Program-made: the position numbers and the translations under genes
Source: Draconibacterium orientale
GTDB lineage: Bacteria > Bacteroidota > Bacteroidia > Bacteroidales > JAIFNL01
Reading direction: 5' to 3'
DNA length: 34,382 nucleotides
NCBI GenBank assembly: GCA_022729915.1
Contig: DZBP01000002.1
Span: 25,039 to 59,420 of the forward strand
Notes under the pieces: model-generated
The model's database searches: none
Seen by the model: the letters and a program-made list of their open reading frames with translations, nothing else
What the model was told of the DNA's origin: nothing
Shown: piece by piece, positions 9,615-26,470 of the stretch
Position numbering within the stretch: position 1 is the stretch's first letter
Layout: every line of letters begins with the position of its first letter

Positions 9615-9820
9615 TCGAAAAAATCTTTTAAAGTCAGTAAAACAACCAAAATAATTAAACTCTTAATTTATAAGTATTTAATCTAAAAATAGCAAGCTAT
9701 TTCTGCAAAAGTCAGATAGTAATAAATCAATAGTCAACTCCTAATTTCACAAAAAAAGAACTTATTTTACATCTAAAAATAAATCGAATAATTGAAAAAA
9801 AAAAATTAACAAAACCAAAC

Positions 9821-10200
9821 ATGAAAAGACTTGAAAATAAAGTAGCTATAATTACCGGAGGTGCCGATGGTTTAGGAAAAGCTGGTGCCATAAAGTTTAT
9901 TGCAGAAGGCGCAAAAGTAATAATTTGGGATTTAAACGAAAAAAAAGCCGCAGAAACGCTCGCCGAATTAAGTGGAAAATCTATTGAATTTATGAAAGTC
10001 AATACGGCTGACTTTTCAGAAGTAGAAAATGCAACTGCCAAAGTAATAAGTAAATACTGACAAATTGATATTTTGGTAAACAACGCTGGCATTACTCGTG
10101 ATGCGACTTTCAAAAAAATGACCATTGAACAATGGCAACAAGTAATCGATGTAAATTTAACCGGTGTATTTTATTGTACCAAAGCAGTTTCCGAGCATAT
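9821..10200 (+). pseudogene. Truncated FabG-like SDR (3-oxoacyl-ACP reductase type) with in-frame TGA
   Basis: KVAIITGGADGLGKAGAIKF...[54 protein letters not shown]: homology continues in the same frame across the TGA at 10058-10060 (ORFs 9821 and 10073), then ends before the catalytic YxxxK. Confidence 0.88.
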
Positions 10201-10204
10201 GTTG

Positions 10205-10751
10205 GCTTGTAATGGGCTTAATATCAGCAGGTTTATCCACATTAGAAGGCTTAATTCAATCTGTATCTTCTTCAATATCAACAGATATATTAAAACCCCT
10301 TTTTCCAAAATTATTTCAAACTGAAAAAAATGGAATAAAAATAAATAAACTAGCTATAATTTTCCTTTCAATTATCACATTTATAATATCTTACGACCAG
10401 TTATTGTACCCAAAACTAAGTGTAGGAATATTAGCACAAAATGGAGTTTATGCATTCTTTTCGGCAGCATTTGTGCCTGTTTTATTTGGTATTTTTGCTA
10501 AAAATGCAAAACTTTCCGCTGTTTTTCCTGCAAGTTTAGCTGCTATTTTAATCCATTTTTCTGTGTATTATTTTATGCCTTTTTTAGTAGAAAATTATAA
10601 TTTTACATTTGGTTTTTTTACTAAATATTTGATAGGTGCAGTTAAAAATCCAGCAATAGCGTCATCAACAGCCATTGTTATTTCTACATTTTTAGGAATT
10701 ATTTTACAAATATTACCACAAAAAAATCAAAAATATGATTCCAAAATTTGA
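10205..10751 (+). pseudogene. C-terminal fragment of a sodium:solute symporter (SSS family)
   Basis: [31 protein letters not shown] resembles the SSS 'AAGMSTLDSLLQSLSSVITTDIYKP' region; upstream TM segments are absent. Confidence 0.8.
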
Positions 10752-11082
10752 TTGGTTCAACGAATGGGCAAATTATTGCCCCAATAAAATTGCTTTTGAA
10801 GAATATGAGTCGAAAAGAACTCTTACTTTCTTAGAAATAAATAACTTAGCAAATTATTTATCAAACTTTTTTATCAATGAACTGAATTTTCAGAAAAATG
10901 ACAGGATTGCAGTTTTGGCTGAAAATCAGCTCGAATACATCTTGCTTTTCGCTGTGGCTCAAAAAACAGGAATAATCCTTGTGCCTTTAAGTGGAATTTT
11001 AAGCAACGAATTAAAAGAATACTTCCCCGATTTTATTAGTTTGTTTAACAAAAATTTACCACAAGAAGCTTTTATTTTTTAA
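10735..11082 (+). pseudogene. N-terminal fragment of an AMP-dependent synthetase/acyl-CoA ligase
   Basis: FDWFNEWANYCPNKIAFEEYESKRTLTFLEINNLANYLSNFF...NDRIAVLAENQLEYILLFAVAQKTGIILVPL matches the family N-terminus; the ATP-binding motif and C-terminal domain are missing. Overlaps the symporter fragment by 17 bp. Confidence 0.8.
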
Positions 11083-11098
11083 GATAAAATAAAAGCTT
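11066..11098. terminator. Terminator-like hairpin, bidirectional
   Basis: 13-bp perfect stem AAGCTTTTATTTT / AAAATAAAAGCTT with 7-nt loop, covering the last codons of the ligase fragment. Confidence 0.6.
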
Positions 11099-11111
11099 TC
11101 TTTGGAAATAA

Positions 11112-11543
11112 TTATAATGTACTTTGGTATTCTGGAAGCTCACTCAACTGAGAATAAGAGTTTGAATCAGCTTTTTTTTCAAATGCCATTGTGGTTGTTC
11201 CATTAGTGATAATCAGATATTTAGCTCCAAGTTGTAGGTTATAATTTGCTGCTTGTTCAAACGTATCCTTTGTTAGTTTAACTGTTTCTGCTTTGCACTC
11301 AACAACTACTTGAGGCTTAAGATTTTCGTCGAAAACAACAATATCGCTTCGCTTTTCATTCTTATTCACTTTCAGATAGTATTCAACAACCATTCTGCCT
11401 TTGGGATATTTTTTTTGTTCGATTAAAAAACGAATAAAATTCTGCCGTACCCACTCTTCAGGTTGCAAAACAACAAATTTTTTGCGCAAAATATCAAAAA
11501 TATATTTAGTTTTATTTATTTCTTTTATATTAAAATCTGACAT
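11112..11543 (-). CDS. Stand-alone HsdR N-terminal (HSDR_N_2-type nuclease) domain protein
   Basis: EEWVRQNFIRFLIEQKKYPKGRMVVEYYLKVNKNEKRSDIVVFDENLKPQVVVECKAETVKLTKDTFEQAANYN: RxDIVV...VVECK. Confidence 0.88.
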   Translation of the reverse strand: MSDFNIKEINKTKYIFDILRKKFVVLQPEEWVRQNFIRFLIEQKKYPKGRMVVEYYLKVNKNEKRSDIVVFDENLKPQVVVECKAETVKLTKDTFEQAANYNLQLGAKYLIITNGTTTMAFEKKADSNSYSQLSELPEYQSTL

Positions 11544-11595
11544 TTTTTTATAATAACTAACTTCAAATTAACTAAATACTAAAATGCACCGACTG

Positions 11596-12234
11596 CTATT
11601 CTTGAATTGGAGTTCCGGCATTAAAACGTTCTATTGCCGATTTTATTCGTCCAATATTCTCTTTTTCAAATTGAGCTTTGTTTTTAACAAATTCAGAATC
11701 ATCTACATTTTTCAATGACGAAAGCACGGTTGTCTCATCACTTTCTGAAGATTTTTCTTTTGTCAATGCCGAAAGAATCTTATTATCAGATACATATATC
11801 CTTGTTTCTTTATATAAATTATCCATATACGAATAAGCTAAATACATAAAAAATACCTTGCCATCGTTAAAATAATAATTTATTTCAAGATAATAGCCTT
11901 CTTCTCCCATCATTTCAACCAATTTTTTTAATTCTAAATCTTTAAAATAAGCATCGTACAATGACATATCATAATATAATTCGGAATCGGGGTTACGATA
12001 TTCTTTTTTTTCAATTCTGTACAAATGCTTTTCTGCTTCAATGGCTTGAAAAAGAGTTCTAATTTTAGCTATTTTCTCTTTATCTGAGATTTTTATAGGT
12101 GTGTCTAAAGCTATTTCTCCTTTATTTGAAAAAGCAAAAGCAGAATTAGAATTACCAAAATCATTAAACTTTGAAAATGAAAAAAAAGTAATAACAGAAA
12201 AAAAGAAAGCTGATAAAATTATATTTTTTGCCAT
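11596..12234 (-). CDS. Hypothetical secreted protein
   Basis: 212-aa ORF with hydrophobic N-terminus MAKNIILSAFFFSVITFFSF; no recognised family. Confidence 0.6.
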   Translation of the reverse strand: MAKNIILSAFFFSVITFFSFSKFNDFGNSNSAFAFSNKGEIALDTPIKISDKEKIAKIRTLFQAIEAEKHLYRIEKKEYRNPDSELYYDMSLYDAYFKDLELKKLVEMMGEEGYYLEINYYFNDGKVFFMYLAYSYMDNLYKETRIYVSDNKILSALTKEKSSESDETTVLSSLKNVDDSEFVKNKAQFEKENIGRIKSAIERFNAGTPIQE

Positions 12235-12331
12235 AATAGTATGAATAATATAAAATTATTTCAAATTTAAATAAAACATTTCATTAAAAAACGTGTTAAT
12301 CAAAATTATATTTTATTTTTATATGCAAAAG

Positions 12332-12348
12332 AAATAGCATTGCTATTT
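12332..12348. repeat. Short palindrome
   Basis: AAATAGCA-t-TGCTATTT. Confidence 0.6.
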
Positions 12349-12357
12349 TTTAAGAAT

Positions 12358-12392
12358 AAATAATTGATTATAATATTAATAATCAATTATTT
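12358..12392. repeat. 14-bp perfect inverted repeat
   Basis: AAATAATTGATTAT - aatatta - ATAATCAATTATTT. Confidence 0.75.
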
Positions 12393-12469
12393 GTTAAAAT
12401 TTATTTTCGTTTAAATATTTCCTAACTCCAATAAAATTACTCAAAAAACGAAAACGATTTGTAGAAAAT

Positions 12470-12570
12470 AAACGCCAGAGTTATTTTAATTTGAGCAATT
12501 TTTTTTGTAATCAAATTAATTCTAAGCACTTTGCAAAACGATATAGACAATTTAATTTGGTTCATTGCTT
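12470..12570 (-). repeat. Dispersed ~98-bp intergenic element, copy A
   Basis: Reverse complement aagcaatgaaccaaattaaattgtctatatcgttttgcaaagtgcttagaattaatttgattacaaaaaaaattgctcaaattaaaataactctggcgttt aligns along its length with copies B, C and D. Confidence 0.88.
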
Positions 12571-12644
12571 AATCCCAAAAAGGAAAGCAAATTTATTGCA
12601 ATTTCAAAAAAATATTTCAATTAGAAAAAGAATAAACACAAAAA

Positions 12645-12675
12645 TTTGTTTTCTCATTTCGATTTTGTAACTTTG
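12645..12675 (+). promoter_or_regulatory. Bacteroidota-type promoter of the protease gene
   Basis: TTTG (12645-12648) - N19 - TAACTTTG (12668-12675), 22 bp upstream of ATG 12697. Confidence 0.75.
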
Positions 12676-12696
12676 AGAATATCAAAAACCAATTTT

Positions 12697-14355
12697 ATGT
12701 TAAAAAAACTTATACTAATTTATACCATTTTTCATTCATCACTCAGTTCTTTTGCACAAATTAGCGAAGGTGGAATTCCATTAAGCTTCACGCACCAAAT
12801 AAAAGGTACAATTCCTGTAAAAACTATTGATATTGAACTAATTAATAACAAAAAGGAAACTGCAAATAGCTATAGAGCTTATGTTGGAAACATAATAGAA
12901 ACTGACATAACTCTCGAAAATTCAGGTATTTGGCAGAATGTAAAAAATGGAAAACTGTGGCAATTAAAAATTGTAGCACAAAATGCAAAGGCAATTTCAT
13001 TGTATTACAATGCATTTGATATACCTGAAGGGGCAACTTTTTTTATTTATAACCCACAGAAAACTACAATTTTAGGCGCATTTACTTCAAGAAATAACCC
13101 TCAAAAAGGGAAATTTGCTACCGTTTTTACTAAAGGCGATGAAGTAATTTTAGAATATTACGTACCAAATAAAACAACAAATGTGGGTAAAATTTCGGTC
13201 AATGAAATAAATTATGCTTTCCAAAATATTGATTTTGAAGAAACTAAAAATGTTTCAGGAACATCTGGCGAATGTCAAATAAACATTAATTGCAAAGGTG
13301 CCGAACAATGGGAAAATGAAAAAAACGCTACAATCCGCTGGTTATCAAGAAACAAAGATGGTTCGTGGTGGTGTAGTGGCACAATAATAAATAATGCAAA
13401 TCAAGATTTTACGCCCTACATTTTATCGTCTGAGCATAATATACTAGATGACAATTATTTACCTGCTGAAAGCTCGTATTTTCAGCAATTCCAATTTTAT
13501 TTTAATTACGAAAGCACAGAATGTGAAAGCCCAAGTAATATAAATAGTATTGAACTTAAATCAATGATTGGTTGCACATTAAAAGCATCTTCTGGAGCAA
13601 ATGGCGAAATTAAAGGATCCGATTTTTTATTATTGGAATTAATTGAAGATATTCCTGATACTTATAATCCATATTTTGCCGGTTGGAATAGGCTCAATTT
13701 GGCTATCGATTCGGGCTATTGTGTGCATCATCCTCAAGGCGATTTGAAAAAAATTTCTAAATCAGTGCAAACCTTATCGAGTAATAAATATAGTAACGAA
13801 ACAGCTTATTGGTCAACTAGTTGGCAAGCAATAGGAAACAAAATTGGAACTACTGAAGCAGGCTCATCGGGTTCTGCTTTATTTAACACAAACAAAGAAA
13901 TTGTAGGAACACTTACTAGTGGAACGTCAAGTTGCTCAGAACCAACGAAATCTGATTATTTTGGGAAATTTTATTATCACTGGAATTTAAATGGTTCAAA
14001 TCCTAAGAATCAACTAAAAACATGGCTCGACCCCAATTCCACAGGCATTTTTTCATTGAAAGGAAGCTATAAAAATGCGAATTCAATATCTTTACCTAGA
14101 AATCAAAAATTTAGTTTCGCAATAAGTCCAAATCCAGCGAAAGAATTTGTAACAATAGAAATTATTGGCGATTTCAATTCTGTTTTTGAGCTTTCTATTT
14201 TTGATATTTCAGGTAAAAAACTGAAATCTGATATAATTTATGCTTTTGAAAAAACAAAGCAAGTAAATTTAAGTAACATGGCAAAAGGCACTTATATATT
14301 AAAACTGTCGTCGGAAGAATATACTTCTTTTCAAAAAATGTTAAAAATTGAATAA
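12697..14355 (+). CDS. Lysyl-endopeptidase-like (S1-fold) secreted serine protease with T9SS C-terminal sorting domain; ORF-track start 12646 is upstream of the real start
   Basis: Signal peptide MLKKLILIYTIFHSSLSSFAQ; WWCSGTIINNANQDFTPYILSSEHN (His), GSDFLLLEL (Asp), HHPQGDLKKIS, GSSGSALF (Ser); C-terminal FAISPNPAKEFVTIEI...LSIFDISGKKL...GTYILKL...QKMLKIE. Confidence 0.88.
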   Translation: MLKKLILIYTIFHSSLSSFAQISEGGIPLSFTHQIKGTIPVKTIDIELINNKKETANSYRAYVGNIIETDITLENSGIWQNVKNGKLWQLKIVAQNAKAISLYYNAFDIPEGATFFIYNPQKTTILGAFTSRNNPQKGKFATVFTKGDEVILEYYVPNKTTNVGKISVNEINYAFQNIDFEETKNVSGTSGECQININCKGAEQWENEKNATIRWLSRNKDGSWWCSGTIINNANQDFTPYILSSEHNILDDNYLPAESSYFQQFQFYFNYESTECESPSNINSIELKSMIGCTLKASSGANGEIKGSDFLLLELIEDIPDTYNPYFAGWNRLNLAIDSGYCVHHPQGDLKKISKSVQTLSSNKYSNETAYWSTSWQAIGNKIGTTEAGSSGSALFNTNKEIVGTLTSGTSSCSEPTKSDYFGKFYYHWNLNGSNPKNQLKTWLDPNSTGIFSLKGSYKNANSISLPRNQKFSFAISPNPAKEFVTIEIIGDFNSVFELSIFDISGKKLKSDIIYAFEKTKQVNLSNMAKGTYILKLSSEEYTSFQKMLKIE

Positions 14356-16186: not shown

Positions 16187-17839
16187 TTAAAATTGGAAAT
16201 AAATAAAAGGCTGTAAATCAGCTGAACGAACTTGGTATATTACAAAAAATACAATAACTGAAATTGCAGCTTTTGCGTAAATTGATGTATTAATGAACCA
16301 GTCTTGGTATTTTTGTTTGAAACTATCTGATAACCAATGAACTGTCATTCCAAATAAAATCACTGCAAAAATTTCTTTATAAGCCATTATCATAGTCGGA
16401 ATTAAAGAAAAAGTCCAATCATTTGCTATCTTAAACATCAGATTATTAGCTTGTTCCATGGAATCAGCCCGAAACCAAATTCTGGTAAATGAGATAAAAT
16501 TGAAGGTTAAGAAAATGGAATACATACGCACTGCCCACGTGTGATTTCCTTTGAAAGGGCTTATTTTGCGCCAATATTTGTACACAACAAGTCCAATCCC
16601 ATTCAAGCCACCCCAAATTACAAAACGCCAACTTGCTCCGTGCCACAAGCCGCCAATCAACATAGTGAGCATCAAGTTTATATTCGTGTCGATAGTTCTT
16701 CGTAAGCGAGGAGATTTGCTTGACGCAATAATAACAATAATTAATAAAATCAAAAATACCGGAACAACTAACCAGTGTTTAAACAAGAAAGCTATGTAAA
16801 GCATTATAATTGAGAACATTACATAACTAAAAATAGAACCTTTTCTGTTACCTCCCATAGGAATATAGAGATAATCTTTGAGCCAAGTGGAAAGAGAAAT
16901 GTGCCAACGTTTCCAAAATTCAGCTACATGCAAAGCCTTATAAGGTGAATTAAAGTTAGTTACAAGCTGGAAACCCATCAAAAGTGCAACTCCAATTGCA
17001 ATATCAGTATAGCCAGAAAAATCGGCATATACTTGCAATGAATATCCATAAAGTGCCATTAAATTTTCAAAACCTGTATAAGCAAGCGGATTTTCAAAAA
17101 CTCTATCTACAAAATTTACTGCAATATAATCCGAAATAAACATTTTCTTCATCAATCCTTTTAAAATCCAAAAGATAGCTAAGCCAAATTCATAGCGAGA
17201 CAAGTTGTAATCTTTATAAAGTTGAGGAATAAAATCAGAAGCTCTAACTATCGGTCCAGCAACAAGTTGTGGAAAAAAAGCTACGAAAAAGCCAAAATCG
17301 AGCAAACTATCTACCGGTTTCAATTTACCACGAAATACATCTACCGAGTAGCTGATGGTTTGGAAAGTATAAAATGAAATACCAACAGGCAAAATAATCC
17401 TATCAACATCAAAATTACCACCAAAAAAATTAGCCATTTCGGCAAAATAATTGTGCGGTTTTATGTCAGTTCCTAATAAATAATTAAGAGAATCAGTTAC
17501 AAGATAGGAATATTTAAAATAAAAAAGTATGAAAAGGTTAACTGAAATACTAACGATTACCAGAAACTTTTTACGGGCAACTGATGTACTTTGATATATA
17601 AACCGTGCTAGATAAAAATCCATAACGGTTGAAAACAGAAGTATTAACAAAAAAATACCACTTGTTTTGTAGTAAAAAAATAAACTTACAAAAAACAAAT
17701 AAGCATTTCGGAGAGCTTTTCGTTTATAAATTAATGAAAATAATGCAAGTACGATTGCAAAAAATCCCCAAAAATATAACTGAGTAAAAATTATTGGGCT
17801 ATGTGCATCAAAAACGAAAATATTTTTTAAATATTCCAC
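16187..17839 (-). CDS. MBOAT family O-acyltransferase (AlgI/PatA-like)
   Basis: Polytopic; FWKRWHISLSTWLKDYLYIPMGGNRKG and MLIGGLWHGASWRFVIWGGLNG signatures with catalytic His. Confidence 0.95.
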   Translation of the reverse strand: MEYLKNIFVFDAHSPIIFTQLYFWGFFAIVLALFSLIYKRKALRNAYLFFVSLFFYYKTSGIFLLILLFSTVMDFYLARFIYQSTSVARKKFLVIVSISVNLFILFYFKYSYLVTDSLNYLLGTDIKPHNYFAEMANFFGGNFDVDRIILPVGISFYTFQTISYSVDVFRGKLKPVDSLLDFGFFVAFFPQLVAGPIVRASDFIPQLYKDYNLSRYEFGLAIFWILKGLMKKMFISDYIAVNFVDRVFENPLAYTGFENLMALYGYSLQVYADFSGYTDIAIGVALLMGFQLVTNFNSPYKALHVAEFWKRWHISLSTWLKDYLYIPMGGNRKGSIFSYVMFSIIMLYIAFLFKHWLVVPVFLILLIIVIIASSKSPRLRRTIDTNINLMLTMLIGGLWHGASWRFVIWGGLNGIGLVVYKYWRKISPFKGNHTWAVRMYSIFLTFNFISFTRIWFRADSMEQANNLMFKIANDWTFSLIPTMIMAYKEIFAVILFGMTVHWLSDSFKQKYQDWFINTSIYAKAAISVIVFFVIYQVRSADLQPFIYFQF

Positions 17840-17979: not shown

Positions 17980-19278
17980 CTATGGTTGGTTGAGTAATGT
18001 TAAATCTGGAAATTTTATAACATATTCTATTTGGCTGAGTTCTGATTCTTTAAAACCTTCCGTATAATTATCATAGGATTTTAAGAAAGCATTAAAAAGT
18101 AAATCTGCTTGCATAAAATATCCATTTCTACTAAAATGAACTTTATCATTAGCAGTTAAACCAGCTTTATGCCAGAGAGTTACTGAGTTTAAACCTCCCA
18201 TAATATTATAAAAATCCCAAGTTGCTAAATAATGTTTGCCAGCTAGTTTTTTTATTTGCTCGCTTACAAGAGCAGTATTTGGATTTACTTTTTTCTTATA
18301 CAAATAACTATCATTGGGTACTGTCAGCAAAATGGGTACATTGGGTAATACCTTTTTTATACGAGTGATTAGCGAATCGTAATTTGTATAATAATATTCA
18401 GGGTTAAATTTCTTTGAATAAGCATCGTTAGTTCCTAACGTCATTATTATCCAATCAGGTTTTAATGCTTTTAGCTGACTTTCAAGCAAATCGCAACGAA
18501 GAAATGCCGGAATTGTTGAACCATTTACTCCAATTCCATGATAAGTTATTCCGGATTGGTCAGTTTCGAGTGAAATTCCATAAAGAGTAAACTGATTTTG
18601 AAGTGAATCGGTTTTAGTAAAACCCATTTCAAGAAAATCAACTTCTTTTTTAAGCTTGTACAAAGTATATCCTTGTTCCTTATTTACCTCAACAACTTCA
18701 TTTTCAATATTTTGAATCACTAATTGAAATGAAGTCTCACTTACATCGTGTAAAACTCTTACCAAATTAAAAGTATAAGGCAAATAGGCGTCTTCTTTAA
18801 GATAAATATTTAAAGTTGAAGCTGTTGATGTAGTTGTAGTTGATAATCCTGAAACTCCTAAAGTACATTTTTTCTTATACTCAACATTTCGACACGAAGT
18901 CCATGTACCAGTATGTTTAATGTAATAATTTCTTGGAACATTAGTACGAGTAAGGTTATAAGGAAATACAAAACCTCTACTTCCTTGCAAACCTGGGTGC
19001 ATTGTTTGCAAACGCTGCGAAAATCTACCTGGTAGCGCACCTGCTTGTACATGAGAACCTCCAAAATGCACAATATTTATTTGTCCTTCACCACTAAAAA
19101 TTAGTTCGTCAAATTTCTGATACAAATTCATAAATTCAGAACTGTCTTTATAAAATTGTATTTTATTTTTATCGTAATGGATAAAATCATAAAACGGAAT
19201 ATCATAAGGATAATCCTGAGCCTTGACCAAAAAAGAGGTAAAAATAATTAGAACAAATAAAAACGATTTAGATTTCAT
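17980..19278 (-). CDS. SGNH/GDSL hydrolase family protein 1
   Basis: Signal peptide; block I IVHFGGSHVQAG, block III IIMTLGTNDAY, block V DKVHFSRNGY. Confidence 0.88.
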   Translation of the reverse strand: MKSKSFLFVLIIFTSFLVKAQDYPYDIPFYDFIHYDKNKIQFYKDSSEFMNLYQKFDELIFSGEGQINIVHFGGSHVQAGALPGRFSQRLQTMHPGLQGSRGFVFPYNLTRTNVPRNYYIKHTGTWTSCRNVEYKKKCTLGVSGLSTTTTSTASTLNIYLKEDAYLPYTFNLVRVLHDVSETSFQLVIQNIENEVVEVNKEQGYTLYKLKKEVDFLEMGFTKTDSLQNQFTLYGISLETDQSGITYHGIGVNGSTIPAFLRCDLLESQLKALKPDWIIMTLGTNDAYSKKFNPEYYYTNYDSLITRIKKVLPNVPILLTVPNDSYLYKKKVNPNTALVSEQIKKLAGKHYLATWDFYNIMGGLNSVTLWHKAGLTANDKVHFSRNGYFMQADLLFNAFLKSYDNYTEGFKESELSQIEYVIKFPDLTLLNQP

Positions 19279-19320: not shown

Positions 19321-20841
19321 TTATTTATTTTTTCGTTTCAAATAATCATTATATTCCATAATCAGAGCGTTATAGAATATTTTTGAAATAATTTCTGATC
19401 CAAGTCGAGTAAAATGGATAAAATCTTTGCCTGCTAATGGTGGATCATGATAAACCCAACTTGGCATAGAATTTTTTCCGCCCATTGCTTCGTACATATC
19501 CCAATAAACCGCATTATATTTAAATGCTGCTTTTCGCAAAGTTGCTGAAATATTTGGGATATTTGGATACGAAACATAGGTTCCGCCTTGATTTATAGAC
19601 ATATCTGCTGGTCCGATAACAATTATTGAGATATCGGGTTTTATTTCGCGAATTACCGCAAGTTGTTTTCCAAACATATTGCCGTAATAATCGTAATTAT
19701 CAGTAACATAAGGAGTAACATTTCCACCAAACTCCAAAATCATCAAACGAACATCGAGTTCATTGAGCATGGCTTTAAGTAATTCTTTGTTTTGTGTAGT
19801 AAAAACAAAACCGGCACTTCCACGTTGTGGAACGTTATCCACTGCAATTCCTTTTTCAGCATCTAAACCAATAGCATAAATTTCAGGACTATCGCCACCA
19901 CTGAATTTAAAAACTAGTTTCTCAGGAGAATTTACCGACCACTTTGCAGTCATCAGTTGTTTGTTTGCAGGCAATATTTTCTCTTCAACAAGTTGTTCGT
20001 CAGCATATAAGCCCACTTTTACGGGAGTTTGATTGTAACCATAAAAAACCCTAACTTGTTTGTAAAAATTATTGTTTTTGTACGCCATATCGGAACGTGA
20101 AAAAGTAATGGTTCCCGAATAGCCCGATTTTACAGCAGTATCAGCTAAAATTACACTTGCAGAATCACTTGAAATACCTCGAATTGGAGCAAAACGCGAA
20201 AAACCGGCTAAGATTCCAAAACGTTGTCCTTTGACAGAGTTTGAATGCTCCATCGTATTGTAACGCAGCCAATTACTCGAATTTTTTTGCTTTATCGTAA
20301 TTCCGTAATTATACGGTTGAAGCGCAGGCAAAAGTCCGGGACCACTACCACCAAATTGTTTTTGCAAATTTTGCCTAATTACCGAGGTTATTCTATCGCC
20401 TTCTAGCTGAGAATCACCATAATGAACGATACGAATTACGCCTTCCTTTGGATTTTGTAGGTCTCTAAAAAAATTATCCAACACCGATTTGTCGCCATTT
20501 GGAAATTGTAATCTTTGAATTGAACTAATACTACCCACTTCAATACTCAAAGTATCAACAACTTCCAGAACCACTTGGAAATTTTGTGAATTATTCTTAA
20601 AAACATTTCGATAAATAATCTCATCATAATCAAGCAAATTGGCAGTATCGATAGCATTCTCTCCAATTATATTTGAAATATTTGCATATTGAATACTTTC
20701 CTCAAACAATTGAGATAGCTTTGGCATTTCTAACTTTTTATCACCACTTATACGAATTCCATCTGCTGGAAAAGCCAACATTATCAATGCAATACTTAAA
20801 AAAACACCAACTAAAAATATTAAAGTTTGATGAGGCTTCAC
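19321..20841 (-). CDS. SGNH/GDSL hydrolase family protein 2
   Basis: N-terminal TM; block I IRIVHYGDSQLEGDR, LILEFGGN-like block (LMILEFGGNVTP), block V KDFIHFTRLG. Confidence 0.85.
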   Translation of the reverse strand: MKPHQTLIFLVGVFLSIALIMLAFPADGIRISGDKKLEMPKLSQLFEESIQYANISNIIGENAIDTANLLDYDEIIYRNVFKNNSQNFQVVLEVVDTLSIEVGSISSIQRLQFPNGDKSVLDNFFRDLQNPKEGVIRIVHYGDSQLEGDRITSVIRQNLQKQFGGSGPGLLPALQPYNYGITIKQKNSSNWLRYNTMEHSNSVKGQRFGILAGFSRFAPIRGISSDSASVILADTAVKSGYSGTITFSRSDMAYKNNNFYKQVRVFYGYNQTPVKVGLYADEQLVEEKILPANKQLMTAKWSVNSPEKLVFKFSGGDSPEIYAIGLDAEKGIAVDNVPQRGSAGFVFTTQNKELLKAMLNELDVRLMILEFGGNVTPYVTDNYDYYGNMFGKQLAVIREIKPDISIIVIGPADMSINQGGTYVSYPNIPNISATLRKAAFKYNAVYWDMYEAMGGKNSMPSWVYHDPPLAGKDFIHFTRLGSEIISKIFYNALIMEYNDYLKRKNK

Positions 20842-20866: not shown

Positions 20867-22522
20867 CTATTTTTCTTTAATTTTCAAAACTTGCCCTACA
20901 TTTAATTTGTAATTTTTTGGCAAATTATTCAATTTCATTATTTTTTCTACGCTTGTACCTTCAAATTTGCGCGAAATATCCCACAAATTGTCGCCACTTT
21001 TTACTTTATAATAAACATACGACGACATTTTGTTTACATCATTTGAAATAGCTAAGCCAGAACTCAATACATCTGATTTGTTGGCTGTAGTTGATGAAGA
21101 AGATTTTCCTGTAGTTGAAGCAGTCTTTGTATTCGACGTGGACGTTTTTCCAACTTTTTTTTGCTTTTCAGCAAAAGTCATCGAATTGATTTCTTTGTAC
21201 TTAGCTTCCTCATATTGAGGTACATAAATAATTATTTCTTGACCAGGATAAATTGTTTTCTTCTGTTGTAAATTATTCCACGATTTTATTTCGTTAATAC
21301 TTACATTGTACCATTGCGCAATTAAACCAATATTATCTCCCGATTTTATTTTGTAAGTTAATTTAGCTTTATTTTTTGGAACGACCTCTTCAAAATATTC
21401 GGTACTGGTTTCGCCAGAACTTACCACTTTGGGTGGAATTACTACAGTTTTCGCAACTTGAAAGTAAACAGTTGAATTGTAATTATATATCGAATCTTCC
21501 AAAGCCTTAAAAGCTTTTATTTGTTTTGTAGAAATTCGCAATGAATTGTTGTCATTTATTGGTTGAATAATTCCAACTTTATATTCTGGGTTCAAATCTT
21601 TCAACTCTTGCATCGAAATTTTTAAAACTTCAGCAATTTGTCCAAAATGAACTTTTTGTTTTACTACCAAAGTATCCATATCTTCCGGCATTTTAACTTT
21701 TATCGGAACAATATTGTACTCTTTATAATATTCTGATAAATAAATACTTGCAATAAATGCGGGTAAATATTCGCGCGAATATTGTGGCAAAAAATTATAA
21801 ATTTTCCACACATTTCGTTCACCGTTAGCACGGCTAATGGCTTTGTTTACGTTTGCAGCTCCACAGGTATAAGCAGCAATTGTTAGCTGCCAATCGTGGT
21901 AAATTTCATACATTTCTTTAAGATACTTAGCTGCAGCTACTGTTGATTTGATTACATCGCGTCTTTCGTCGGTGTAGCTGCTGATATTCAATCCATAACG
22001 CTTTGCCACAGGGTATGAAAGTTGCCAGATACCTGAGGCTCCGGTTTGTGAAATTGCGGCTGGAAAAAAAGAAGAACCCGTCATTGCTAAATATTTAAGT
22101 TCCAAGGGAAGCTTATATTTTTTTAGGTTTTCTTCAAACATAGGCTCGTAATAATCAGCTAAACCAAGCATTGCTTCCACTTTTGTTCTATTTAGTGGAT
22201 CTATATAGAATTTAATAAACGAATTTACCTCATTATTAAAAGGTAACCCGACATAGCTCTCTATTTTGCTTAATTTCTTTTTTACTAACGAATCAGAAAT
22301 TACTGGATTTTTTTTAACCGAATTATTTTTTCTATTTGCAATTGCTTTTTCTACATACGAAATTTTTGCCAGGCTATCTAAGTTTGTGATAAACAAATTG
22401 TTTTCAAAACCATAGCCATTTAAAACTAGTCCCGAAGTGCCTCCAGAATTAGTTTGAGCTGGTAAAAAAATAGGTAAAAATATAAATGCAATTATTATGT
22501 ATTTTAAATTCATACGTTTCAT
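20867..22522 (-). CDS. MltD-like lytic-transglycosylase fold protein with two LysM domains; catalytic Glu apparently replaced by Gly
   Basis: LKYLAMTGSSFFPAAISQTGASGIWQLSYPVAKRYGL (SLT-like), AAYTCGAANVNKAI; LysM at YKIKSGDNIGLIAQWYNVS and YKVKSGDNLWDISRKFEG. Confidence 0.9.
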   Translation of the reverse strand: MKRMNLKYIIIAFIFLPIFLPAQTNSGGTSGLVLNGYGFENNLFITNLDSLAKISYVEKAIANRKNNSVKKNPVISDSLVKKKLSKIESYVGLPFNNEVNSFIKFYIDPLNRTKVEAMLGLADYYEPMFEENLKKYKLPLELKYLAMTGSSFFPAAISQTGASGIWQLSYPVAKRYGLNISSYTDERRDVIKSTVAAAKYLKEMYEIYHDWQLTIAAYTCGAANVNKAISRANGERNVWKIYNFLPQYSREYLPAFIASIYLSEYYKEYNIVPIKVKMPEDMDTLVVKQKVHFGQIAEVLKISMQELKDLNPEYKVGIIQPINDNNSLRISTKQIKAFKALEDSIYNYNSTVYFQVAKTVVIPPKVVSSGETSTEYFEEVVPKNKAKLTYKIKSGDNIGLIAQWYNVSINEIKSWNNLQQKKTIYPGQEIIIYVPQYEEAKYKEINSMTFAEKQKKVGKTSTSNTKTASTTGKSSSSTTANKSDVLSSGLAISNDVNKMSSYVYYKVKSGDNLWDISRKFEGTSVEKIMKLNNLPKNYKLNVGQVLKIKEK

Positions 22523-22584
22523 TTAATTCTCTCACGTTATTTAGCGAGAAACAATATAACATAAATAGTTCCGCAAAATTAATC

Positions 22585-24063
22585 TTAAATACGTTTAATT
22601 TTAATTTTATCGCCCGGGTTAATTTTGCTTTCATCGCTCAAATTATTGATTTTCAAAATATCAAAAGTAGTGATATTCTCAAATTGTTGAGAGATTTTCA
22701 AAAAGCTATCGCCTTGTTTCACAGTATAATACAAAAATGTTTCCGATGCTGTTTCCGAACCCGAAATTTTCATATTTTCTTGCAATTTTTGGCTCGAAGC
22801 TAAAGCAGTATTTTCGATAGCATTATTTGGATTGTAAGCATAAATTTCTTTTTCTCTTTGCAAAAAAGCAGTTGTGTGCTCTAATGGCAGACGAAGCGTA
22901 TAACCTTCTGCTACTGCGGGAATTACATCTTTTTTATATTGAGGATTTAACTCTTTAATTTGCTCAATAGGAATACCTAAAACTGCCGAAATTTGACTAA
23001 AAGCAAGTGTTTTGTTTGTAATCATTAATGTATCAGAAGCCAACGGCAATTCGAAAGGAAGTGGTACTATTTTATGCTCTTTATAATAATTCATGATATA
23101 AGTTGCACCAATATAAGCTGGTACATAATTTTGAGTTTCTTTTGGTAAAAATTGAGAAATATACCAATAATCTTGGCTTCCACCACCTTTTTTTATCGCT
23201 CTGTTTACATTTCCAGGTCCACAATTGTAGGCTGCCAATGCCAAAGTCCAATCACCATACGTATCGAATAAGTTTTTCAAATAACGTGCTGCTGCATGAG
23301 TCGATTTTATTGGGTCAAGGCGTTCATCTACTGAAGAATTGATATTCATTCCGTAAGCTCTTCCGGTTGGATAAATAAATTGCCACAAACCTGCTGCTTT
23401 TGCTCTCGACATTGCTACTGGATTCAGAGCAGATTCAATAATTGCCAAATATTTCAATTCCAAAGGAACACCGTAAGCATCAAAAATCTCCTCAAAAATT
23501 GGAAAATAAAATTCGGCTCTTCCAAGTAAGCGTTGAACAGTTATTACCGATTTACGACGTGTATATCGCTCAATATAATCTTTAACTCTCTCATTATAAG
23601 ATAAATTGATAACGGTCGAAAGGTTTTTTAAACGAGCTATATAAACGGAATCGGTACAAGCTATTATCGACGAATCACGAGTCCAATTTTCCTCATAATC
23701 ATATACTTGGGTCTCAATATTTGTAAACCACAACATCGAAAGGCTATCTATTTCGTTCGCATTTCTGCCTACATAATTTGCTCCGTAAGGAATATAAGGC
23801 GCAGGCGCAGGTGCTGAAAGTACTATAAGTTCTTGGTTGTTTGCTTCTTGAATATCGTTCAAGACTTTAGTGTGCAGTTCTGAAATAAAGCTATTTATAA
23901 AATACTTATTTTCAGATTTTTCCATGTAATTAATGAATAAACTGTCGTACTGAATTGCATTAAAATTAAGTTTCAGTTCAGAATCTGTTTTTTCTACTTG
24001 TGCTTTTGTTATATTATTAAAGCTTAATGTTATAACAATTAATAAAAGTACAATTTTTCTCAT
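22585..24063 (-). CDS. MltD-like lytic transglycosylase with C-terminal LysM
   Basis: LKYLAIIESALNPVAMSRAKAAGLWQFIYPTGRAYGM (Glu present), AAYNCGPGNVNRAI; LysM YTVKQGDSFLKISQQFENI. Confidence 0.93.
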   Translation of the reverse strand: MRKIVLLLIVITLSFNNITKAQVEKTDSELKLNFNAIQYDSLFINYMEKSENKYFINSFISELHTKVLNDIQEANNQELIVLSAPAPAPYIPYGANYVGRNANEIDSLSMLWFTNIETQVYDYEENWTRDSSIIACTDSVYIARLKNLSTVINLSYNERVKDYIERYTRRKSVITVQRLLGRAEFYFPIFEEIFDAYGVPLELKYLAIIESALNPVAMSRAKAAGLWQFIYPTGRAYGMNINSSVDERLDPIKSTHAAARYLKNLFDTYGDWTLALAAYNCGPGNVNRAIKKGGGSQDYWYISQFLPKETQNYVPAYIGATYIMNYYKEHKIVPLPFELPLASDTLMITNKTLAFSQISAVLGIPIEQIKELNPQYKKDVIPAVAEGYTLRLPLEHTTAFLQREKEIYAYNPNNAIENTALASSQKLQENMKISGSETASETFLYYTVKQGDSFLKISQQFENITTFDILKINNLSDESKINPGDKIKIKRI

Positions 24064-24138: not shown

Positions 24139-24711
24139 TTAAAAATTCAACGAAACTTTTATCCCAAAAGCTGTTGAATTCAATAAATCTATGTTATTTA
24201 TTAGTATTGGCTGCGTTTTAAAACTTAAATTAGGGCTTACATCAAAGGTAAAAAAATGCGCATCTACATTGGCATCAATAATATTTAATGCGTGCAAACC
24301 CATAGTAACCAAAAACATAAGGTCTCGGCTACGTTTGTATGAATCTTTCACATTTTTCAAATATTCTTTGCGACCTGCTCCATACAATTCAAGAGTAGCA
24401 GCATCGCCCTGTACATAAAGTTTATAAATATCCTTTACGTACAAATATTGCTCATTGTTGAAAGAAATTGCATAAATAGAACCAGCGTAAGCTGCCCAAA
24501 TGATAGGAATTTTCCAATATTTTTTATTGTAATATTGCCCCAAACCAGGTAAAATAGCAGAAAAAATAGCTGCTTTTTTGGGCGAGTGAAATTTTACCAG
24601 CGTTGAATCAATTTCAGATTCTACTCGGATAGTATCGCTTTTTTGAGCTTGTACTTTCAAGCTCAAAAAAGCAAAAATAAAAATAATCGTATATGGTAAT
24701 AATTTCTTCAA
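24139..24711 (-). CDS. DUF5683 domain-containing protein
   Basis: HSPKKAAIFSAILPGLGQYYNKKYWKIPIIWAAYAGSIYAISFNNEQY. Confidence 0.9.
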   Translation of the reverse strand: MKKLLPYTIIFIFAFLSLKVQAQKSDTIRVESEIDSTLVKFHSPKKAAIFSAILPGLGQYYNKKYWKIPIIWAAYAGSIYAISFNNEQYLYVKDIYKLYVQGDAATLELYGAGRKEYLKNVKDSYKRSRDLMFLVTMGLHALNIIDANVDAHFFTFDVSPNLSFKTQPILINNIDLLNSTAFGIKVSLNF

Positions 24712-24730: not shown

Positions 24731-25618
24731 TTAGTTCTCTGACAATTTGTTAAACATTTTCACTAATTCCTCAAACTCTTCGTCGCTATTAAATGGTATG
24801 ATAATTTTACCTTTTCCTTTGGCATCGAGTTTCAAATCAATTTTTTGCTTAACTCGTTGAGCTAATTGCTTTTTAAAGTTAGAAAAATGTTCTGGCAAAG
24901 TTGATACTGGCTTTTTGTTAGGAAGTTTTTCTAACTCCTCTTCACTCGCACCTTTTACAAGTTGTTCGGTTTTTCTAACTGAAAGTTCTTCATTTATAAT
25001 TTTAAAGTAAATTTTAAGCAGTTCATCTGGTTCTTCCAATGCAACGAGAGCTCTGGCATGTCCCATGCTAATTTTTTTGTCGCGAATACCTATTTGAACT
25101 TCTACTGGTAATTTTAAAAGGCGCAAATAATTTGAGATAGTTGCTCTGTTTTTACCAATTCTCTCGCTCATCAAATCCTGAGTAAGCTGGCATTCGTCAA
25201 TCAAACGTTGGTATGAAATTGCTATTTCAATCGCATTCAAATCTTCGCGTTGAATATTTTCAGCCAAAGCCATTTCAAGCATTGCTTGGTCGTCAGCTTC
25301 GCGCACATAAGCCGGAATGGTTTTCAAATCAACCTGAAGTGCAGCTCTGTAACGTCTTTCACCGGAAATTATCTGAAAATAGTCGTCAATTTTTCGTAGT
25401 GTAATGGGCTGAATAATACCCAATTTAGCTATTGATTGAGCTAGTTCCTCTAAAGCTTCTTTTTCAAAATTAGTACGAGGTTGAAACGGATTGGCTTTTA
25501 TTTTGCTCAATTCTACTTCTTTAACAGTACCAAGAGCCTCTATTTCAGATGCTTTTTCATACTTATTATCATCTATTAAAGCTCCAAGCCCTCTTCCTAA
25601 AACACTTTTTTTTGACAT
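24731..25618 (-). CDS. parB: ParB/RepB/Spo0J family partition protein
   Basis: KKSVLGRGLGALI, IKANPFQPR, IISGERRYRAA, ALAENIQREDLNAIE, IGKNRATISNYLRLLKL. Confidence 0.96.
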   Translation of the reverse strand: MSKKSVLGRGLGALIDDNKYEKASEIEALGTVKEVELSKIKANPFQPRTNFEKEALEELAQSIAKLGIIQPITLRKIDDYFQIISGERRYRAALQVDLKTIPAYVREADDQAMLEMALAENIQREDLNAIEIAISYQRLIDECQLTQDLMSERIGKNRATISNYLRLLKLPVEVQIGIRDKKISMGHARALVALEEPDELLKIYFKIINEELSVRKTEQLVKGASEEELEKLPNKKPVSTLPEHFSNFKKQLAQRVKQKIDLKLDAKGKGKIIIPFNSDEEFEELVKMFNKLSEN

Positions 25619-25672: not shown

Positions 25673-26470
25673 CTATTTTGCTGCTTCTAATTCAGCTTGT
25701 TCTCTTTTTACGGCTTTTTCTAATATTTCTTTGGCTAAATTCAAATAGCTAACTGCACCTTTTGAACTTGCATCGTGCAAAATTACGGGTTCGCCAAAAC
25801 TTGGTGCTTCTCCTAATTTTGTGTTTCGTGCAATTATTGTTTCAAAAACCATGTCGGAAAAATGTTTTTGAACTTCTTCAACTACCTGATTAGCAAGCCT
25901 TAAACGTGAATCATACATAGTTAGTACAAAACCTTCGATATCTAGTTTTGTGTTGATTCTGTTTTGAACCATTTTAATGGTATTCAGCAATTTACCTAGT
26001 CCTTCGAGAGCAAAATATTCGCACTGAACCGGAATAAGAACAGAATCAGCAGCACTCAATGCATTCAGCGTTAGCAATCCTAGAGAAGGTGAGCAATCAA
26101 TTAATATATAATCGTAACGATCTCTTAATTTATTAATTATTTTATCTAAAATTTTTTCTCTCTCATCAATATTAAGCATCTCAATTTCAGCACCCACTAA
26201 GTCAATGTGTGAAGGAATTAAGTCAAAACCTTCTGTTTTAGTAGTTAAAATGGTTTCAACAGGGTCCATGCCGTCAATTAAGCAATCATAAATATTTTTC
26301 TCAATACTTTTTAAATCAAAACCAGTTCCTGAAGTAGCATTTGCCTGAGGATCAGCATCTATAAGTAGAACTTTTTTTTCAAGCACGGCTAAACTTGCTG
26401 CTAAATTTATAGAAGTAGTGGTTTTTCCAACGCCTCCTTTTTGATTTGCAATTGCAATTACTCTTGACAT
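25673..26470 (-). CDS. parA: ParA/Soj family ATPase
   Basis: MSRVIAIANQKGGVGKTTTSINLAASLA deviant Walker A; DYILIDCSPSLGLLTLNAL. Confidence 0.97.
   Translation of the reverse strand: MSRVIAIANQKGGVGKTTTSINLAASLAVLEKKVLLIDADPQANATSGTGFDLKSIEKNIYDCLIDGMDPVETILTTKTEGFDLIPSHIDLVGAEIEMLNIDEREKILDKIINKLRDRYDYILIDCSPSLGLLTLNALSAADSVLIPVQCEYFALEGLGKLLNTIKMVQNRINTKLDIEGFVLTMYDSRLRLANQVVEEVQKHFSDMVFETIIARNTKLGEAPSFGEPVILHDASSKGAVSYLNLAKEILEKAVKREQAELEAAK

What the first reader, a model, noticed from the sequence alone, without database searches (positions are those of the whole stretch)
22076..22078. Lytic-transglycosylase paralog with the catalytic glutamate replaced by glycine
The adjacent paralogs align as [27 protein letters not shown] (22585..24063, Glu210 present) and LKYLAMTGSSFFPAAISQTGASGIWQL (20867..22522). 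The Glu position is GGT (Gly149) in the second, while the surrounding SLT fold motifs and two LysM domains are intact. This suggests an inactive peptidoglycan-binding pseudoenzyme paired with an active enzyme.
Basis: partly seen in the sequence, partly recalled or inferred. Interest (0 to 1): 0.62.

Follow-up and report, generated by a model that had tools for sequence, protein, structure and literature searches.

The report
Dead cell-wall cutter in acetylation operon
A protein built like an enzyme that cuts bacterial cell walls has lost its cutting residues but is still kept by selection, and it sits first in a conserved gene set that looks made to add or remove acetyl groups on the cell wall, so it probably works as a wall-gripping part of that machine rather than as a scissors.

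Summary
Codon 22076..22078 (-) is GGT, so Gly149 lies where MltD-type lytic transglycosylases (LTs) have the catalytic Glu. The alignment is ungapped and no acidic residue is nearby. The substitution is fixed in three congeneric genomes, and the gene is under purifying selection (dN/dS 0.05-0.12). The second catalytic motif (AYN, here AYT) is lost too.

The gene leads a conserved cassette: LT - SGNH1 - SGNH2 - MBOAT. The MBOAT has the invariant His and the C-terminal FXYXXF acyl-shuttle motif of PatA-type acyltransferases. Both SGNH proteins match Ape1-type O-acetylpeptidoglycan esterases best among solved structures. The cassette is widespread in the order. Its LT keeps Glu in 29 genomes and has lost it in 12 (Gly, Leu, Ile, Lys, Met) from 8 families, plus two genomes outside the order. 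All 12 also encode a separate active-type MltD.

Most likely it is a non-catalytic, LysM-bearing peptidoglycan-binding subunit of a PG O-acetylation/de-O-acetylation machine, comparable to Neisseria LtgA-Ape1. Inactivity and retention are well supported by sequence; partner and substrate are inferred. Pairing with the adjacent active MltD is real here but is not the conserved association.

The parts
20867..22522 (-). MltD-like lytic transglycosylase pseudoenzyme (P0001, 551 aa; signal peptide, SLT domain, two LysM domains)
22076..22078 (-). GGT = Gly149 at the catalytic Glu position
21866..21868 (-). ACC = Thr219 where 53 of 53 Glu-containing relatives have Asn (AYN motif)
21854..21856 (-). 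GCA = Ala223 where 53 of 53 Glu-containing relatives have Gly
21821..22138 (-). SLT domain (residues 129-234)
   Evidence: PF01464, 80.5 bits
21227..21361 (-). first LysM domain (about residues 388-432)
   Evidence: two LysM stretches; first located by PF23473 match 388-426 and by the model
20876..21010 (-). second LysM domain (residues 505-549)
22585..24063 (-). active-type MltD paralog (P0002, 492 aa; Glu210 at 23434..23436, Asn280 at 23224..23226)
19321..20841 (-). SGNH1: SGNH hydrolase with N-terminal hydrophobic segment (P0003); Ser144, Asn374, Asp473, His476
17980..19278 (-). SGNH2: secreted Ape1-like SGNH hydrolase (P0004); Ser75, Asn284, Asp378, His381
16187..17839 (-). MBOAT O-acyltransferase (P0005); His400
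16190..16207 (-). C-terminal FIYFQF, matching the FXYXXF acyl-shuttle motif of bacterial MBOAT-SGNH systems
24139..24711 (-). DUF5683 protein upstream of the two LT genes
24731..25618 (-). ParB
25673..26470 (-). ParA

Best explanation
P0001 is a catalytically dead MltD-family protein kept as a non-enzymatic periplasmic subunit of a peptidoglycan O-acyl-modification machine encoded by the genes just downstream. Proposed mechanism: the MBOAT (P0005) loads acetyl from the cytoplasm onto the Tyr of its C-terminal FIYFQF. The membrane-anchored SGNH1 takes it up on its Ser and passes it to MurNAc O-6 (PatB-like). SGNH2 removes it (Ape1-like), or the two share these roles. The pseudo-LT, secreted to the periplasm with two LysM domains and a substrate groove without its acid, holds the glycan strand and docks or stimulates the SGNH enzymes. 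The strand is then modified or de-modified without being cut, which controls where active LTs such as P0002 can act. Shown by sequence: loss of the catalytic motifs, retention under selection, the conserved operon, and intact acyl-transfer signatures. Inferred: physical docking, peptidoglycan as the substrate, and the roles of each SGNH protein.
For: Glu is lost together with the AYN Asn and the following Gly: kept in 53/53 Glu-containing relatives, but in 0/10, 1/10 and 1/10 of the Glu-less ones, while W166, Q167, D185 and R187 stay invariant. Purifying selection: dN/dS 0.045-0.116. All Glu-less proteins found lie directly upstream of SGNH1 and SGNH2, usually with MBOAT after them. Of 67 SGNH1 loci examined, 42 have an LT immediately upstream: 29 with Glu, 12 without, 1 cut by a contig end. 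MBOAT FXYXXF is present in 46 of 46 complete genes, with the WHG His; this motif is the acyl carrier in PatA (PMC12148441). SGNH1 and SGNH2 hit PDB 4k3u (E 2.9e-19 and 4.5e-31) and 8gkd. Precedent: Neisseria LtgA forms a complex with Ape1 and enhances its activity (PMC7083599). PatB has no carbohydrate-binding domain of its own (PMC12148441). All 12 Glu-less genomes also carry a separate Glu-containing MltD, against 13 of 28 genomes with an intact cassette LT (Fisher p 0.001; genomes not independent).
Against: No interaction or biochemical evidence exists for these proteins. Peptidoglycan as the modified polymer is inferred; MBOAT-SGNH pairs also modify other envelope polymers. About 25 of 67 SGNH1 loci have no LT next to them, so the cassette can work without one. 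Where the cassette LT keeps Glu, the partner is presumably an active enzyme, so a purely structural role is not general.
Confidence: 0.6

Rival explanations
1. One reading: P0001 is an inactive partner, decoy or regulator of the adjacent active MltD (P0002), as the inactive LytM factors are for amidases and other autolysins.
For: The genes are adjacent and co-directional in all three congeners (62 bp apart in the window) and in G036. Every Glu-less genome has a separate active-type MltD. Catalytically inactive LytM proteins such as DipM regulate several autolysins, LTs included (PMC10336132, abstract).
Against: In G050, G087 and G188 no active MltD lies next to the Glu-less gene, while SGNH1-SGNH2-MBOAT does. 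P0001 and P0002 are not a recent tandem pair: they fall in different parts of the LT tree.
Confidence: 0.2
2. The cassette acylates another envelope glycan (exopolysaccharide or a surface polymer), and P0001 only anchors the machine to peptidoglycan through LysM.
For: MBOAT-SGNH pairs are used on several polymers (PMC12148441). The MBOAT profile is closest by sequence to DltB among solved structures.
Against: The SGNH proteins are closest to Ape1-type esterases. An LT is the gene next to SGNH1 at 42 of 67 loci. No polysaccharide biosynthesis genes were seen next to the cassette in the window.
Confidence: 0.2
3. P0001 is still an enzyme, using another acid or a different chemistry.
For: The groove residues W166, Q167, D185 and R187 are kept. 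Glu126 is an acid gained in five of the ten Glu-less proteins, the window genus among them.
Against: There is no acid in the motif region. The AYN Asn and neighbouring Gly are lost as well. The replacements at the Glu site are chemically unrelated (Gly, Leu, Ile, Lys, Met). Glu126 is not shared by most of the Leu-type proteins.
Confidence: 0.07
4. Decaying pseudogene or assembly error.
For: Single substitution at a catalytic codon.
Against: The full-length ORF is intact in three species, with dN/dS of 0.12 or less and the same Gly in independent assemblies.
Confidence: 0.01

Closest known systems
MltD (family 1 lytic transglycosylase, SLT plus LysM), PDB 8rhe/8rhf/8rhi
   Same: Same domain order (SLT then LysM), best match by sequence and by fold, G-x-W-Q motif kept
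   Different: Catalytic Glu and AYN Asn are missing; one gene of an MBOAT/SGNH operon
PatA-PatB-Ape1 peptidoglycan O-acetylation operon of Neisseria and Campylobacter
   Same: One MBOAT with FXYXXF and His plus two SGNH hydrolases in one operon
   Different: Both SGNH proteins look Ape1-like rather than PatB (DUF459)-like; an LT or LT pseudoenzyme is part of the operon
Neisseria LtgA-Ape1 complex (PMC7083599)
   Same: An LT associated with an SGNH O-acetylpeptidoglycan esterase, whose activity the LT enhances
   Different: LtgA is a catalytically active LT of another subfamily, and is not part of the patA-patB-ape1 operon; here the LT has lost its catalytic residues
Catalytically inactive LytM factors (DipM and relatives)
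   Same: Works like: a cell-wall hydrolase fold without active-site residues, kept as a regulator or adaptor, with LysM domains in DipM
   Different: Different fold and family (M23 peptidase, not SLT)

Membership tests
MltD / SLT lytic transglycosylases | SLT domain followed by LysM domains | tested here: met
MltD / SLT lytic transglycosylases | catalytic Glu in the ES motif | tested here: not met
   Gly149
MltD / SLT lytic transglycosylases | AYN motif Asn | tested here: not met
   Thr219; 53/53 Glu-containing relatives have Asn
MltD / SLT lytic transglycosylases | release of 1,6-anhydro-muropeptides | not testable with these tools
   needs purified protein
MBOAT-SGNH acyltransferase systems (PatAB kind) | MBOAT domain with invariant His | tested here: met
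   P0005 His400 in GGLWHG
MBOAT-SGNH acyltransferase systems (PatAB kind) | C-terminal FXYXXF acyl-shuttle motif | tested here: met
   FIYFQF; 46 of 46 complete MBOATs; motif defined in PMC12148441
MBOAT-SGNH acyltransferase systems (PatAB kind) | partner SGNH protein with Ser, Asn, Asp, His blocks in the same operon | tested here: met
MBOAT-SGNH acyltransferase systems (PatAB kind) | PatB (DUF459) family membership of the transferase | tested here: not met
   P0003 has no DUF459 match; P0004 scores 24.2 against a cut-off of 27.2
MBOAT-SGNH acyltransferase systems (PatAB kind) | peptidoglycan O-acetylation in vivo | not testable with these tools
   needs peptidoglycan analysis
Ape1 O-acetylpeptidoglycan esterase | homology across both halves, with an insert between the Ser block and the rest of the SGNH domain | tested here: met
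   SGNH2 and SGNH1 match 4k3u in two stretches on either side of an insert; identification of 4k3u as N. meningitidis Ape1 is from memory, the table gives only a generic name
Ape1 O-acetylpeptidoglycan esterase | esterase activity on O-acetylated peptidoglycan | not testable with these tools
   needs assay

The most novel reading that the evidence does not exclude
A family of lytic-transglycosylase pseudoenzymes, arisen several times, serves as a dedicated non-cutting glycan-strand clamp of a Bacteroidota peptidoglycan O-acetyltransferase/esterase complex. The same operon position holds either an active cutter or a dead one, so the operon can couple acetylation to strand cleavage or separate the two.
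Probability: 0.4. Interest if true: 0.75.

Novelty: new variant of a known kind. Interest (0 to 1): 0.58.

Why it matters
Peptidoglycan O-acetylation controls lytic transglycosylases and lysozyme resistance. How the acyltransferase finds its strand, and how it is coordinated with the cutters, is open. A conserved operon in which a cutter is repeatedly replaced by its own dead version gives a natural experiment. It predicts an O-acetylation system in Bacteroidales, of which I found no description in the papers searched, and a non-catalytic role for the LT fold that can be tested by deletion and pull-down.

Tried and rejected
Lone mutation or sequencing error: rejected by three species with Gly and by dN/dS. 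Recent tandem duplication of P0002: rejected, as the two LTs fall in different parts of the tree. A strict DNA motif scan of 396 genomes across the phylum gave two hits, both chance (one not an SLT sequence, one with an in-frame stop); the profile search later found two further Glu-less cassettes outside the order (G578, G437), so the strict scan under-counts. Single ancient loss or several: the LT tree puts nine Glu-less proteins in one clade (99/99, catalytic column masked), but the SGNH1 partner tree splits them into four groups and rejects one clade at p 0.027. Shared relaxed evolution or long branches may pull the LT sequences together, so this is left open, leaning to several losses. Literature searches for LT pseudoenzymes and for PatB/Ape1 in Bacteroidota found no description of this cassette; most subscription papers are not in that library. 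The promoter scan was at chance level (49 found, 49.2 expected) and not used. A residue-level 3D overlay was not done, because no model coordinates appeared in the script folder; only fold matches were used.

Full report
OBSERVATION. The codon at 22078..22076 (minus strand) is GGT, residue 149 of the 551-aa ORF 20867..22522. The protein has an SLT domain (80.5 bits) and two LysM domains and is closest to murein transglycosylase D. Its neighbour 22585..24063 is 36% identical over 395 residues, without gaps around the motif, and has Glu210. Solved P. aeruginosa MltD also has Glu in this column and is the best match of the predicted model by fold (E 1e-15; the active neighbour gives 5e-18).

THE RESIDUE IS FIXED AND THE GENE IS MAINTAINED. 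The two other genomes of the genus (88% and 73% identical) keep Gly. Between species, dN/dS of the gene is 0.045 and 0.116, against 0.077 and 0.128 for the active paralog and 0.03-0.09 for the downstream genes (synonymous sites are near saturation, so these are rough). Beyond Glu, the gene has lost Asn of the AYN motif (Thr219) and the Gly four residues on (Ala223). In 53 Glu-containing relatives all three residues are invariant. In ten Glu-less ones they survive in 0, 1 and 1 cases, while W166, Q167, D185 and R187 are invariant in both groups. This is what loss of catalysis with retained fold and groove looks like.

THE OPERON. On the minus strand the order is parA, parB, DUF5683, P0002, P0001, P0003 (SGNH), P0004 (SGNH), P0005 (MBOAT), with gaps of 62, 25, 42 and 140 bp between the last five genes. 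P0003 has an N-terminal hydrophobic segment that reads as a membrane anchor and P0004 a signal peptide (my reading of the sequence). P0005 has the MBOAT His (His400) and ends in FIYFQF, which fits the FXYXXF acyl-shuttle motif of bacterial MBOAT-SGNH systems, whose Tyr carries the acetyl group in PatA (PMC12148441). P0003 and P0004 have Ser, Asn, Asp and His in the SGNH blocks. Their profiles match PDB 4k3u best, then 8gkd/8gld, with 4k3u in two stretches on either side of an insert. I recognise 4k3u as Neisseria meningitidis Ape1 from memory; the table gives only a generic name.

DISTRIBUTION. A pattern scan for LT motifs with another codon at the Glu found four genomes in 393 of the order, and Gly/Ala/Val forms only in the window's genus in 295. 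The downstream gene SGNH1 is in 103 of 198 genomes of the order. I read 67 SGNH1 loci: 42 have an LT immediately upstream on the same strand, of which 29 keep Glu, 12 lack it and 1 is cut by a contig end. Glu-less states are Gly (3 genomes, the window genus), Leu (6), Ile (1), Lys (1) and Met (1), in 8 families. Two of these (G042, G178) have a strongly degenerate SLT domain. Ten of the 12 have SGNH1, SGNH2 and MBOAT all detected downstream; G036 and G042 lack a detected MBOAT. Outside the order, G578 (Leu) and G437 (Ile) have Glu-less LTs before SGNH1-SGNH2. At most of the other loci no LT is next door.

RELATION TO ACTIVE LTs. Every one of the 12 genomes has a separate Glu-containing MltD, either adjacent (window genus, G036) or elsewhere. 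Among genomes whose cassette LT keeps Glu, 13 of 28 do (one further genome has an interrupted copy; Fisher p 0.001, without correction for kinship). So Glu seems dispensable at this operon position only where another MltD covers cutting.

HISTORY. In the LT tree (catalytic column masked) the Glu-less proteins form one clade (99/99), and P0002 belongs with the non-cassette MltDs. In the tree of the partner SGNH1 the same loci fall into four groups, and one clade is rejected at p 0.027. Either Glu was lost several times and relaxed evolution draws the LTs together, or dead LTs moved between cassettes. I lean to several losses.

MECHANISM. Most likely a periplasmic peptidoglycan-binding subunit that presents strands to the SGNH enzymes fed by the MBOAT. 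Steps shown by sequence are the loss of catalytic motifs, the maintenance, the operon, and the acyl-transfer signatures. Docking, substrate and division of labour are inferred. The closest experimental precedent is LtgA, an LT that complexes with and enhances Ape1 (PMC7083599). PatB itself lacks a carbohydrate-binding domain (PMC12148441), a gap that a LysM-bearing partner could fill. In C. jejuni the patA-patB-ape1 genes set peptidoglycan O-acetylation (PMC5077204).

VERDICT. I rate it a new variant of a known kind.

Noticed in passing
L005 and L006, about 9812-12857: Bacteroidales loci with a Glu-containing LT directly followed by an SGNH1 homolog (31%) but no SGNH2 or MBOAT next to it: a reduced form of the cassette.
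   Followed up: partly
L109:4035-4433 (G170): A small HEPN-like gene (by eye) is inserted between the LT and SGNH1 of an otherwise intact cassette; the same genome has a second MltD split in two pieces (G170:C137).
   Followed up: no
G024:C23, G137:C155, G096:C132: MltD-like matches with three to five in-frame stops: decayed LT copies, or matches joined across two frames.
   Followed up: no
L151:3514-4533 and L137:5919-7007: Cassette-leading proteins with a strongly degenerate SLT domain (Glu to Met or Leu, WQ replaced by WA) and a LysM domain: a further stage of loss of the LT character.
   Followed up: partly
window 22486..22803, + strand: 105-aa ORF antisense to the start of P0001 and the end of P0002; no evidence that it is a gene.
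   Followed up: no
window 10164..10751, + strand: 195-aa piece of a sodium:solute symporter (profile positions 302-395 only), possibly a truncated gene.
   Followed up: no
window 12646..14355, + strand: 569-aa protein with a type IX secretion C-terminal sorting domain and no other Pfam match.
   Followed up: no
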